A DNA stretch of 64,000 bases, from the NCBI RefSeq assembly GCF_001713355.1, contig NZ_CP016448.1:372001-436000 (forward strand), read 5' to 3'. How positions within the stretch are numbered: position 1 is the stretch's first letter; every line of letters begins with the position of its first letter. The DNA is from Methyloversatilis sp. RAC08. Its GTDB lineage: Bacteria; Pseudomonadota; Gammaproteobacteria; Burkholderiales; Rhodocyclaceae. Position numbers and translations under genes: made by a program. Under the pieces are notes generated by a model. The model was not told where the DNA came from. It ran no database searches and worked only from the letters and a program-made list of their open reading frames with translations. This document shows positions 41,112-43,539 of the stretch, piece after piece.

Positions 41112-41434
41112 GCTGGACGCTCTGGCTGTGGCTATCGCGATGCTGGACGCTCCAGCTGTGGCTATCGCGATGCTGGACGCTCCAGCTGTGGGAGCGGCGG
41201 CCCCGCCGCGATACGCACTTTGCACGGCGATGGTCGCGGCACGATCGCGGCGAGGCCGCCGCTCCCACAGGCCGCCGCTCCCACAAGAAGCTCGCGGCTC
41301 GCCAGCCGCACCGGCGCTGCTTCCGTCAGGATCGATGCAACAGGCGATCGCTCCAGAAGTTCTGCCTGCGAGATTCCCGATGCAGGATGCTCCAGCTGTG
41401 GCTATCGCGATGCTGGACGCTCCAGCTGTGGGAG
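41112..41434. repeat. Tandem 30-mers and REP unit, left of the IS
   Basis: Near-identical 30-bp units reading CTGGACGCTCCAGCTGTGGC then TATCGCGATG recur from 41112 to 41186 (the first copy diverged) and again at 41391-41430. Between them lies a REP pair (41187-41269) plus a half-site and a unique-looking stretch (AAGAAGCTCGCGGCTCGCCA onward). This roughly 240-bp composite recurs to the right of the IS. The last bases, TGTGGGAG at 41427-41434, are the first part of a REP whose remainder resumes at 42635. Confidence 0.85.
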
Positions 41435-41437
41435 ATT

Positions 41438-42403
41438 CTATGTCTGAGCACAAGTGTTTTTGTGCTCCCTGGGTTGGTATTGCGAGCCGGTTTTCATGAG
41501 AGAGAACGCAACGCGAGCGATCTTTCTCGCGAGTGCGACGAGGGCCTGAGTGCAGGAGAATCCGCGAGCGATGCAGGCCTGATAGAAGGGTTTCCAGGTG
41601 GCTGAGCGGCTGGCTGCCATGGCGGCGTTGTGCAGGAGTCGGCGCACCTCCGGGTCGCCCTTTTTGCTCAGGGTGCCGCGGGCGTTCTGGTTTCCCGATT
41701 GGCGCACGCACACATCGAGCCCGAGATAGGCGATGAAGGCGTCTGCGCTTTTGAAGGCGCCCCGATGGAAGGTCGCGCACAAGGCGGCGGCGCTCAGCGG
41801 ACCGACGCCTTCGATACCCTGGCAGCGGCGGTGATCGTCGATCCAGTCGCTGGCTTTGAGCTTTTCCACGATCTGGGCCTGAATCTGCTGGGCGAGCCGG
41901 TCGGCCTTGGCCAGCAAGGCGCGCACCTCGCGCTTGAAGCCGGGCAGATCGAACAGGCTCTGGCGCAAGATGACGGCGGTCCGGACCAGGGTGGCGCGAC
42001 GACGCAGCAGTTGCTGCACGCGTTGCGTGGCCTCGGGCGGCAGCGTGTAGGGGCGCAGGTGCGAGCCCTCTTTGGCGACGTAGCGGGCGATGAGCCGGGC
42101 GTCGATCGGGTCGGTCTTGGCCCGCACGCTGGTGGCGCCGCGGTAGCGCGAGAGGCGGTAGCCGTCGATCAGGTAGAGCGGGTGCCCGGCCTTGATCACG
42201 GCGTCGCGCAGCGCGAGGTGGTAGGTGCCGGTGGCCTCGCAGCCGATGTGCAGCGGGCCGCTGGGCAAGGTGCGCAGCCAGGCCCGGATGGCTAGAGGGG
42301 TGTTGTCGATGCGCTGCACCGGGCCGTGCTCGCCCAGTGCGATATCGAGGCTGGCTTTGGATACGTCGATGCCGATGTGAATCGGCGAAGGCTGACTTGT
42401 CAT
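41438..42403 (-). CDS. IS110-family transposase (DEDD recombinase)
   Basis: A 321-residue enzyme starting at 42403. The N-terminal RuvC-like DEDD domain shows HIGIDVSKASLDIAL, CEATGTYHLAL and TDPIDARLIARYVAKEG. The C-terminal Transposase_20 domain has GIEGVGPLSAAALCATF and the serine-containing region RGTLSKKGDPEVRRLL. Length and motif order are complete, so it is probably active. Family members recombine DNA guided by a bridge RNA transcribed from the element's own non-coding end. The stop codon lies three bases inside the element's right end. Confidence 0.93.
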   Translation of the reverse strand: MTSQPSPIHIGIDVSKASLDIALGEHGPVQRIDNTPLAIRAWLRTLPSGPLHIGCEATGTYHLALRDAVIKAGHPLYLIDGYRLSRYRGATSVRAKTDPIDARLIARYVAKEGSHLRPYTLPPEATQRVQQLLRRRATLVRTAVILRQSLFDLPGFKREVRALLAKADRLAQQIQAQIVEKLKASDWIDDHRRCQGIEGVGPLSAAALCATFHRGAFKSADAFIAYLGLDVCVRQSGNQNARGTLSKKGDPEVRRLLHNAAMAASRSATWKPFYQACIARGFSCTQALVALARKIARVAFSLMKTGSQYQPREHKNTCAQT

Positions 42404-42432
42404 GAACAGGCGCTCCCGACTAAGGTTTAGGG

Positions 42433-42600
42433 ACTTGTCGGGACTCACCAGGCAATCGCTTGCAGGATATGGTCGATCAGGGCCGGCGAGGGCCGCGTCG
42501 ATGGATTCCTCATGGGTGCTCGATGGTGAGGGGCGGGACGATATCTCCCACGGTCTGTGCAAAAGCCAGAAGCGGCGTTAGTCCCTCCACCCCGACAAGT
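42433..42600 (-). ncRNA. Candidate IS110 bridge RNA
   Basis: The 229 bp upstream of the transposase ATG carries no gene. In transposase orientation ACTTGTCGGG (42600-42591) is perfectly complementary to CCCGACAAGT (42442-42433), giving a closing stem. Inside it, CGCCGCT (42577-42571) equals the left half of the target plus CT core, and GTGGGAG (42551-42545) is the reverse complement of core plus right half. A TCTG/CAGA stem lies between the two guides. This is the arrangement of the target-binding loop of IS621 bridge RNA. A second loop with weaker matches to the joined IS ends (GAATC at 42508-42504, CAAG at 42462-42459) could be the donor loop. RNA ends are not defined. Confidence 0.7.
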
Positions 42601-42634
42601 TCTCACTACAACTTGCCGAGACAGAACATACAAG

Positions 42635-43021
42635 CGGCGGCCTCGCCGCGATACGCACTTTGCACGGCGATGGTCGCGGCACGATCGCGGCGAGGCCGCC
42701 GCTCCCACAGGCCGCCGCTCCCACAAGAAGCTCGCGGCTCGCCAGCCGCACCGGCGCTGCTTCCGTCAGGATCGATGCAACAGGCGATCGCTCCAGAAGT
42801 TCTGCCTGCGGGATTCCCGATGCAGGATGCTCCGGCTGTGGCTATCGCGATGCTAGACGCTCCAGCTTTGGCTATCGCGATGCTGGACGCTCCAGCTGTG
42901 GGAGCGGCGGCACCGCCGCGATACGCACTATGCACGGCGATGGTCGCGGCACGATCGCGGCGAGGCCGCCGCTCCCACAGGCCGCTGCTCCCATAAGAAG
43001 CTCGCGGCTCGCCAGCCGCAT
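42635..43021. repeat. REP composite repeat, right of the IS
   Basis: This is the remainder of the split REP (to 42709), a half-site, and the same stretch as left of the IS (AAGAAGCTCGCGGCTCGCCA through CTGCCTGCGGGATTCCCGAT). Degenerate 30-mers (42835-42896), a further REP pair (42897-42979) and the start of a third composite unit up to about 43021 follow. The three units form a tandem array that predates the IS insertion, because the IS interrupts unit 2. The array ends about 75 bp before the RAYT gene. Confidence 0.85.
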
Positions 43022-43095
43022 TGCTCACAGATCCAGCGAACGCTTCCCGCGATCTTTTTACCCGTTATGGGTAAATGCGGTCTATTCTCTTTTTC

Positions 43096-43539
43096 ATGAA
43101 TGAGCTGCCCGCATCGCGACGACTCCGGACGGGCCGGATATCGATTCCGGGCCAGGTTTATCTGGTCACGACCGTGACGCGCGAACGCGAGCCAGTGTTT
43201 GGAGATCTGTCCGCGGCACGCCGGGTGATCTGCTCTCTGATGAATTCGGACGCGCGTGGCCATGCCACAACACTGGCGTTCGTACTGATGCCGGATCACC
43301 TGCACTGGATGCTGCAGCTCGGCCCTACCTTCAACCTGAGCCGCGTCGTTCAGCAGATGAAGTCATTCAGCGCCCACGCCGCCGGCGCGGCGCTGTGGCA
43401 ACCGGGATTCCACGACCACGCGCTGCGCCGCGACGAAGACCTCGCCGCGGCTGCGCGCTACCTGGTCGCCAATCCGCTACGCGCGGGTCTTGTGCGGCAT
43501 GTCGGCGACTACCCCCACTGGGACGCAGTGTGGCTTTGA
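43096..43539 (+). CDS. REP-associated tyrosine transposase (RAYT, Y1/HUH)
   Basis: A 147-residue protein from the ATG at 43096. It is a Y1 transposase of the IS200/IS605-like TnpA_REP type, with the metal-binding HUH motif in VLMPDHLHWMLQL and the catalytic tyrosine in AAARYLVANPLRAGLV. RAYTs are single-copy, domesticated transposases that cleave and mobilise REP hairpins carrying a GTGG/GTAG-type foot. REP pairs flank it on both sides (42897-42979 and, inverted, 43669-43751), the classic layout. It probably generated the REP family seen across the window. Confidence 0.9.
   Translation: MNELPASRRLRTGRISIPGQVYLVTTVTREREPVFGDLSAARRVICSLMNSDARGHATTLAFVLMPDHLHWMLQLGPTFNLSRVVQQMKSFSAHAAGAALWQPGFHDHALRRDEDLAAAARYLVANPLRAGLVRHVGDYPHWDAVWL

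What the first reader, a model, noticed from the sequence alone, without database searches (positions are those of the whole stretch)
42404..42634. Readable bridge RNA target loop of an IS110 element that programs REP insertion
Seen: in transposase orientation the non-coding 5' end of the IS contains CGCCGCT (42577-42571) and GTGGGAG (42551-42545). The reconstructed target, GGCCGCCG-CT-CCCACAG, is a REP half-site. The first element is identical to the 7 nt ending in the core and the second is the reverse complement of the 7 nt beginning with the core. A perfect 10-bp long-range stem (42600-42591 with 42442-42433) encloses both guides and a second candidate loop. Known: IS110/IS621 elements use a bridge RNA with left and right target guides and a CT core. 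Inference: this is a natural bridge recombinase addressed to this genome's own REP family, so each REP is a potential landing site.
Basis: partly seen in the sequence, partly recalled or inferred. Interest (0 to 1): 0.82.

Follow-up and report, generated by a model that had tools for sequence, protein, structure and literature searches.

The report
Bridge RNA element aimed at REPs
A small jumping gene in a Methyloversatilis bacterium appears to carry its own guide RNA that sends it to one exact spot in a short repeat scattered across the genome; it looks like a new case of a mechanism already known from other bacteria.

Summary
Window 41435-42632 is a 1198-bp IS110-group element flanked by CT cores. 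Its leader contains both claimed guides and the 10-bp long-range complement. The host genome holds ten copies (nine full, one internally deleted). All 10 lie between ...CGCCGCT and CTCCCACAG, the 12-bp site that the two guides spell. That 12-mer occurs intact 277 times (reversed control: 5). Nine copies break a REP; the tenth has a non-REP left half inside a REP-bearing region and still matches both guides.

Across 36 elements and 11 guide types, the left-guide slot matches its own target at 5.05 of 7 positions, against 3.35 when swapped (0 of 100,000 permutations). The right guide changes with the target too (GTAGGAG at CTCCTAC in two relatives; CGACGAG at CTCATCG, 6 of 7, in one). An unguided consensus fold recovers a target loop, a donor loop and the long-range stem, with compensatory changes. 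L093 and L092 fit poorly; L054, not scored, also fails.

REP-targeting by bridge-RNA IS110 elements is published (IS621; ISPpu10 inspected), so this is a new member of a known kind. Extras are guide drift between near-identical recombinases in one genome, and a possible alternative pairing near the transposase start. No RNA or activity was tested.

The parts
41435..42632 (-). IS110-group insertion sequence, 1198 bp (TGTATG...TAGAAT in transposase orientation)
   Evidence: ends fixed by 9 full copies with differing outer flanks, 6 of them 100% identical over 1198 bp
41438..42403 (-). IS110 recombinase (321 aa): DEDD + Transposase_20 domains; stop codon TAG lies inside the donor half-site CATAGAAT
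   Evidence: Pfam PF01548 E 9.8e-20 and PF02371 E 1.3e-19; NCBIfam NF033542 'IS110 family RNA-guided transposase' 192 bits vs cut-off 140; profile hits IS621 and ISCro4 structures
42404..42632 (-). left-end non-coding leader: predicted bridge RNA (covarying fold over 42600-42433)
42633..42634 (-). CT core, left copy
   Evidence: CT on both sides in 9 of 9 full copies and in 36 of 36 elements (in the latter the ends were located by motifs that include this CT)
41433..41434 (-). CT core, right copy
42571..42577 (-). left target guide CGCCGCT (includes core CT)
   Evidence: identical to left target in 10 of 10 copies; covaries with target in relatives
42545..42551 (-). right target guide GTGGGAG
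   Evidence: reverse complement of CTCCCAC; GTAGGAG at CTCCTAC in L089 and L094, CGACGAG at CTCATCG in L095
42543..42544 (-). possible handshake guide AU, complementary to donor AT next to the core
   Evidence: position as described for IS621 (PMC11208158, passages); read from sequence, not tested
42554..42570 (-). inner hairpin of the target loop (TCTGGC..GCACAGA)
   Evidence: 4 of 7 pairs with changes on both sides
42581..42585 (-). target-loop closing stem, 5' arm GGGAC (continues upstream)
   Evidence: helices 2-3, 97.8-100% of cells paired but nearly invariant, no pair changed on both sides
42535..42539 (-). target-loop closing stem, 3' arm GTCCC
42503..42509 (-). left donor guide GGAATCC (donor AGAATCT: 5 of 7 identical, one G:T wobble, one mismatch at the core T)
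   Evidence: GAATCT exact in 5 of 15 aligned elements (counted)
42459..42472 (-). right donor guide CCATATCCTGCAAG: CAAG pairs CTTG of the donor, CATA could pair TATG discontiguously
   Evidence: CAAGC invariant in 15 of 15; invariant, so no covariation test possible
42591..42600 (-). long-range stem, 5' arm ACTTGTCGGG (can also pair with CGGCAAGT just upstream as the 5' hairpin)
42433..42442 (-). long-range stem, 3' arm CCCGACAAGT
   Evidence: 91.6% of cells paired, 4 of 10 pairs with changes on both sides, 11 such cells vs 3.1 shuffled

Best explanation
This is an IS110-group (IS621-type) insertion sequence. Its left end encodes a bridge RNA with a target loop (LTG CGCCGCT, RTG GTGGGAG) and a donor loop. 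Shown by sequence comparison: the element, its CT-bounded ends, ten copies at one exact 12-bp site, left guides that follow the target in most relatives, and a covarying two-loop RNA. Inferred from IS621: the element excises as a circle, the joined ends form a promoter that transcribes the leader, the RNA binds the recombinase, and the two loops bring the circle junction (GAAT-CT-TGTA) and a CGCCG-CT-CCCAC site together for strand exchange at CT. The target is the head and stem of this genome's REP family (GTGGGAGCGGCGGCC), which gives the element hundreds of exact landing sites.
For: Protein: IS110 families above cut-off; D13, E56, D98, D101 and S236 invariant in an alignment of 10 recombinases; hits to IS621 and ISCro4. 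Sites: 10 of 10 copies at CGCCGCT|CTCCCACAG; the base just outside the left match is C, G or T. 277 intact 12-mers vs 5 for the reversed control. Covariation: own-target match 5.05 of 7 vs 3.35, 0 of 100,000 permutations; 12 of 100,000 if the two relatives whose slot I anchored by eye (L092, L095) are dropped, 0 if L095 is put at its aligned columns. A blind scan of 286 leader columns x 22 target positions over 25 distinct loop-target pairs picks the LTG slot, 0 of 200 permutations. The RTG changes with the target in L089, L094 and L095. Same genome, near-identical recombinases: in G182, L065 and L074 (guide AGCTCG) sit at AAGCTCG while L070 (guide AGTCCG, recombinase 313 of 321 identical to L065) sits at AAGGCCG. 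RNA: 31 pairs, 93.2% of cells paired, 52 cells changed on both sides vs 17.5 in shuffles and 3-7 when slid. Junction: TTG 17 bp before TATGTT/TATGGT in 20 of 23 distinct circle junctions (counted from the listing).
Against: No RNA or transposition data. L093 matches 0 of 7 and L092 3 of 7 at the LTG slot; L054, not scored, has a left flank that does not fit its guide. The complementary-strand (RTG) blind scan is not significant: its best diagonal is elsewhere and 5 of 200 permutations reach it; the right target is CTCCCAC in 32 of 36 elements. The number of standard pair types in the RNA fold is no higher than in shuffles (347 of 500). The window's LDG mismatches at the core. The permutation test ignores kinship. 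The junction -35 scores only 3 of 6 in 18 of 23, and 42% of shuffles give 3 or more.
Confidence: 0.92

Rival explanations
1. REP specificity is set by the recombinase protein itself (or by REP hairpin structure), and the matching leader segments are coincidental or captured REP sequence.
For: Nine of 10 copies are in a REP and the tenth is in a REP-bearing region. REP-specific insertion is reported for IS families outside IS110, such as ISPsy8 of the IS3 family (PMC1525189; that these lack guide RNAs is recalled). The host's REP type and the element's lineage are confounded.
Against: Recombinases 313 of 321 identical in one genome sit at different REP subtypes; of the two guide bases that differ, one follows the target and one does not. 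The 41%-identical relative L095 has both guides changed to match a site that is rare in its genome. The match sits in one homologous slot of a covarying loop in relatives 41-61% identical.
Confidence: 0.05
2. The leader structure serves mainly to regulate transposase translation (a folded 5'-UTR that hides the ribosome-binding site, as reported for ISPpu9), with no guide function.
For: ISPpu9 has a 244-nt 5'-UTR that folds over the RBS and an antisense sRNA (PMC8450116, abstract and passages). Here the SD GGGAG is unpaired with probability only 0.05 in the predicted ensemble.
Against: Does not explain why loop segments equal the insertion site and change with it. Both roles may coexist.
Confidence: 0.02
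3. The ten copies descend from duplication of REP-bearing segments rather than from separate insertions.
For: Six copies are 100% identical, and REP sequence flanks nine on the left.
Against: Outer flanks differ between copies, and the base next to the 7-nt left match varies (C, G, T). In G070, eight copies likewise have differing outer flanks.
Confidence: 0.01

Closest known systems
IS621 (E. coli, IS110 group)
   Same: DEDD/Ser recombinase, left-end bridge RNA with target then donor loop, LTG/RTG around a CT core, REP as natural target, promoter across the circle junction (PMC11208160 sections 6, 7, 12 and passages; PMC11208158 section 7 and passages)
   Different: Different REP sequence. 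A covarying basal stem closes both loops here; the IS621 passages I read describe a 5' stem-loop, a TBL, a linker and a DBL. In several relatives the LTG does not pair with the core dinucleotide.
ISPpu10 and ISPpu9 (Pseudomonas putida, IS110 family)
   Same: All copies (7/7 each) at one point in a REP with a 2-bp repeat (PMC1525189 passages). ISPpu10 is one of six elements whose predicted bridge RNA, target and donor are shown in PMC11208160 (legend of Extended Data Fig. 10, passage only; figure not seen). ISPpu9 has a long structured tnp 5'-UTR (PMC8450116 passages).
   Different: Different host. I did not compare sequence with ISPpu9/10 themselves; the nearest Pseudomonas relatives found (P. 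entomophila) are 45-60% identical. I did not look for an Ssr9-like second RNA or an Asr9-like antisense RNA.
ISPa11 (P. aeruginosa, IS1111 group)
   Same: RNA-guided insertion into REPs (seekRNA, PMC11187229 passages)
   Different: IS1111 group: RNA downstream of tnp; here the predicted RNA is upstream.

Membership tests
IS110 family, IS110 group (IS621-type bridge recombinases) | DEDD_Tnp_IS110 + Transposase_20 recombinase with DEDD and catalytic serine | tested here: met
   residue correspondence to IS621 by order and spacing only
IS110 family, IS110 group (IS621-type bridge recombinases) | long non-coding left end, short right end | tested here: met
   229 nt left; 3 nt beyond the stop codon right
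IS110 family, IS110 group (IS621-type bridge recombinases) | CT-type core dinucleotide shared by target and donor | tested here: met
   9 of 9 full own copies; 36 of 36 elements, where ends were located by motifs that include CT
IS110 family, IS110 group (IS621-type bridge recombinases) | RNA fold with target loop then donor loop | tested here: met
   (comparative prediction)
IS110 family, IS110 group (IS621-type bridge recombinases) | LTG complementary to the bottom target strand, covarying with the target | tested here: met
   misses in L093 and L092
IS110 family, IS110 group (IS621-type bridge recombinases) | RTG complementary to the top target strand, covarying with the target | tested here: inconclusive
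   complementary in all (34 of 36 exact; L085 and L095 6 of 7), but the right target varies in only 4 of 36 and the blind scan was not significant
IS110 family, IS110 group (IS621-type bridge recombinases) | donor loop guides complementary to own ends | tested here: inconclusive
   LDG 5 of 7 plus a wobble; RDG CAAG contiguous, rest discontiguous; donor ends invariant, so no covariation
IS110 family, IS110 group (IS621-type bridge recombinases) | promoter formed across the circle junction | tested here: inconclusive
   TTG-17-TATG in 20 of 23 junctions but low consensus score
IS110 family, IS110 group (IS621-type bridge recombinases) | RNA made, bound by recombinase, required for recombination | not testable with these tools
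   needs small-RNA-seq and a recombination assay
IS1111 group | RNA in the right end | tested here: not met
   right end has 3 nt beyond the stop codon
IS1111 group | sub-terminal inverted repeats of 7-17 bp | not tested
   feature from PMC11208160 section 12; not searched for

The most novel reading that the evidence does not exclude
In this lineage the bridge RNA doubles as a switch. The segment ACTTGTCGGG can pair either with the 5' hairpin arm (bridge-RNA-like 5' stem-loop) or with CCCGACAAGT just before the transposase start (long-range stem closing both loops). The choice could couple guide-RNA folding to exposure of the ribosome-binding site, so that one RNA serves as guide or as messenger. 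Alongside this, guides drift one or two bases at a time and follow the host's REP subfamilies, including their GTGG/GTAG heads, so the element is an RNA-guided parasite co-evolving with REPs.
Probability: 0.2. Interest if true: 0.6.

Novelty: new member of a known kind. Interest (0 to 1): 0.42.

Why it matters
It is a clean natural test of bridge-RNA targeting. Several copies per genome, hundreds of empty exact sites and near-identical recombinases with different guides make guide re-targeting by point mutation visible. It is a candidate 12-bp-addressed recombinase with a GC-rich target from a methylotroph, and it sits beside a RAYT gene, so two REP-dependent systems meet at one locus. The mechanism itself is already published.

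Tried and rejected
Single-sequence folding as evidence for the structure: z -1.0 and no long-range stem in the minimum-energy fold, so only the comparative result is used. Rfam found nothing at gathering threshold. tblastn of the recombinase in the plasmid collection found nothing at 1e-50. Order (399 genomes), phylum (398) and two family searches added only L096, in which neither end motif was found.

Pattern SNNNNCGCTCCCAC was a poor choice: S excludes the A-initial REP variants, so it was followed by RAGNNCGCTCCCAC. There 22 of the roughly 100 places listed for G182 (214 in all) read AAGCTCG, and 16 of the roughly 50 listed for G226 (139 in all), counted by eye. The three AGCTCG-guided copies all sit at AAGCTCG, which is suggestive but few.

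The alternative-pairing switch: the 5' hairpin and the long-range stem each pair better with their own partner than with swapped ones (5 and 1 of 20,000 permutations over 11 of 15 leaders). But the 5' hairpin has weak covariation on the alignment (3 of 7 pairs; 31 of 500 shuffles reach that) and is absent in L098. The long-range stem has probability 0.02 in the window's own leader and 0.5 or more in 5 of 11. Forcing it raises SD exposure by more than 0.25 in 4 of 11 leaders, and lowers it in L095. It is kept as the novel reading only.

Guide anchors: the slot of L092 and L095 was anchored by eye, after seeing the targets, and for L095 it is one base off the alignment columns. One search repeats the test without them (9 types, 34 elements: own 5.07, swapped 3.71, 12 of 100,000) and with L095 at its aligned columns (own 4.78, 0 of 100,000). 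The RTG strings searched were also chosen after seeing the targets; the alignment places them in one set of columns without using targets. Two predicted pairs inside the guides, (67,103) and (68,102), were dropped from the consensus.

Left out of the 36-element table: L054 and L055 (no right end; L055's guide GATCCGCT sits at GGGCCGCT, L054's flank does not match), L056-L060 (right end only, 5 of 5 CTCCCAC), L087 (no pair of end motifs at the right distance), L096, L099, L100, L102 and L104 (neither end motif), L097 (right end only), L101, L103 and L105-L109 (ends not scanned), L037-L042, L047 and L048 (short leader matches, not used), L012-L030 (REP matches only), and loci that repeat a place already used (L010, L011, L031, L032-L036, L043-L046, L049, L050, L052, L053, L061, L067, L071, L075, L078, L080, L082, L084, L086).

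The L006 flank translation was done in the wrong orientation and is void; redid it. The -10 column is shifted by one base, so its spacer '16' is 17 to TATGTT.

Full report
What is there. The window lies at 372001-436000 of a single-contig 3.94-Mb genome; the nearest named relative of the element is in Methyloversatilis sp. XJ19-49 (94%). Window 41435-42632 is an insertion sequence read on the minus strand. Its recombinase (41438-42403) matches DEDD_Tnp_IS110 and Transposase_20, scores above NCBI's cut-off for 'IS110 family RNA-guided transposase', and a profile of ten recombinases finds the solved IS621 and ISCro4 recombinases. D13, E56, D98, D101 and S236 are invariant in that alignment; equating them with IS621 D11/E60/D102/D105/S241 is by order and spacing (PMC11208158, passages).

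The claimed sequence features are real. CGCCGCT, GTGGGAG and the 10-bp complement are at the stated coordinates. In 20,000 dinucleotide shuffles the ordered pair of 7-mers within 60 nt appears 6 times.

Copies in the same genome. Nine complete copies, six of them 100% identical and three about 96% identical, plus one internally deleted copy, were found. All 10 have CGCCGCT immediately left and CTCCCACAG immediately right of the element. The base left of the 7-nt match is C, G or T, so shared sequence on the left ends where the guide match ends. A REP stem stands within 40 nt on the left in nine; in L006 it does not, although REP pieces end 80 and 133 nt further left and a clpB-like coding frame lies to the right (reading mine). 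The full 12-mer occurs 277 times intact, against 5 for the reversed control, so about ten of some 287 exact sites are occupied. Whether the sites are intergenic was not tested.

Guides follow targets. Elements were collected by recombinase or leader similarity and their ends located by conserved terminal motifs, giving 36 elements with both flanks. Left guides form 11 types. Examples: G070 GCGCCGC at GCGCCGCT (8 of 8 scored copies); G182 and G226 AGCTCG at AAGCTCG (3 of 3); L094 CAAGTCGCT at CAAGACGCT; L095 TCCCTGGCA at TCCCTGGCT; L098 AGGCTCGAT at AGGCTCGCT. Own-target matches average 5.05 of 7 outside the core against 3.35 when types are swapped; none of 100,000 permutations reaches it. Dropping the two slots that I anchored by eye leaves 5.07 against 3.71, reached by 12 of 100,000; putting L095 at its aligned columns gives 4.78, reached by none. 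A blind scan over the leader alignment, on 25 distinct loop-target pairs, picks the same slot (0 of 200 permutations); the complementary-strand scan is not significant (5 of 200) and does not pick the right guide. Against: L093 matches 0 of 7, L092 3 of 7, and L054 (not in the set because it has no right end) does not match. The right target is CTCCCAC in 32 of 36, with GTGGGAG opposite it; it is CTCCTAC with GTAGGAG in L089 and L094, and CTCATCG with CGACGAG (6 of 7) in L095; L085 has CTCCTAC opposite GTGGGAG, one G:T wobble. The L095 site is rare in its genome: one exact and five one-mismatch matches.

The clearest single contrast is within genome G182. L065 and L070 have recombinases identical at 313 of 321 residues and leaders that differ at 11 of 235 positions, two of them inside the left guide. 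They sit at AAGCTCG and AAGGCCG respectively. One of the two guide changes fits the new site and the other does not.

RNA fold. RNAalifold on an unguided alignment of 15 leaders gives the long-range stem, a target-loop stem with an inner hairpin between the two guides, and a donor-loop stem with an inner hairpin. I dropped two predicted pairs inside the guides before testing. The remaining 31 pairs have 93.2% of cells paired (82.4% shuffled; 31-45% slid), 16 pairs with a change on both sides (8.9 shuffled) and 52 such cells (17.5 shuffled; 3-7 slid); the count of pair types is not above shuffles. The long-range stem alone has 4 of 10 pairs with changes on both sides, which 49 of 500 shuffles reach, and 11 such cells, which none reaches. 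A competing 5' hairpin uses the same segment; it pairs well with its own partner but its covariation is weak.

Mechanism. By homology with IS621, a circle is excised, the joined ends carry a promoter (TTG 17 bp upstream of TATG in 20 of 23 junctions, though with poor consensus scores), the leader RNA binds the recombinase, the target loop reads CGCCGCT/CTCCCAC, the donor loop reads GAATCT/CTTG, and strands exchange at CT. These steps are inferred; none was observed here.

What is known. A bridge RNA with REP targets is published for IS621, and ISPpu10 is one of six elements whose predicted RNA, target and donor were inspected (PMC11208160: sections 6, 7 and 12 and passages). ISPpu9 and ISPpu10 are fixed REP occupants (PMC1525189, first of six parts and passages). 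ISPa11 uses a seekRNA for REPs (PMC11187229, passages). One paper search held the word Methyloversatilis (381 papers with two of three terms, 20 listed, only PMC2680597 with all three); searched bridge RNA, IS110, REP, covariation, ISPpu9 and Asr9 terms and their listings showed no report of this element or of a guide/translation switch. Listings only, partly capped, and no preprints are held, so absence from print is not shown. The element is a new member of a known kind.

Scores. Interest 0.42: well documented and instructive, but expected by specialists.

Noticed in passing
43075-43539 (+): REP-associated tyrosine transposase (RAYT; NCBIfam NF047646, 136 bits vs cut-off 80) in the REP cluster directly beside the element. 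The right target guide GTGGGAG equals the REP head that starts with GTGG (that RAYTs recognise such a motif is recalled).
   Followed up: partly
41253-41285, 42693-42725, 42963-42993: The guide-matched unit itself occurs as 16-bp tandem repeats (AGGCCGCCGCTCCCAC); copies L004, L008, L009 and L088 have a second CGCCGCT unit just left of the insertion.
   Followed up: partly
41180-41434 and 42635-42900: REP-containing sequence of about 200 bp is repeated on both sides of the element, with 30-bp tandem repeats, as if the insertion landed in a duplicated REP array.
   Followed up: no
41435-41442 (-): The recombinase stop codon TAG lies inside the donor half-site CATAGAAT, so the right donor arm is coding; the G070, G118 and G182 relatives end the same way as far as read.
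   Followed up: partly
42404-42445 (-): Before the start codon TCCCGAC...GTCGGGA can form a hairpin over the SD GGGAG, using the same arm as the long-range stem.
   Followed up: partly
L093, L092, L054: Relatives whose left flank does not match the guide slot; possible rearranged flanks, shifted guide or off-target insertion.
   Followed up: no
L006 left flank: About 80 nt of non-REP sequence separates a broken REP from the insertion; either a guide-only target or a later rearrangement.
   Followed up: no
L098 (IMGVR_UViG_2917843420_000002): A relative of the element (45%) on a contig classed as viral, with a 7 of 7 left-guide match and no 5' hairpin.
   Followed up: no
window:41438-42403 (-): Weak matches of the recombinase C-terminal half to TIGR-Tas proteins (PDB TasH E 7e-6; NF052498 26 bits vs cut-off 100), as expected from the published link between the families.
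   Followed up: no
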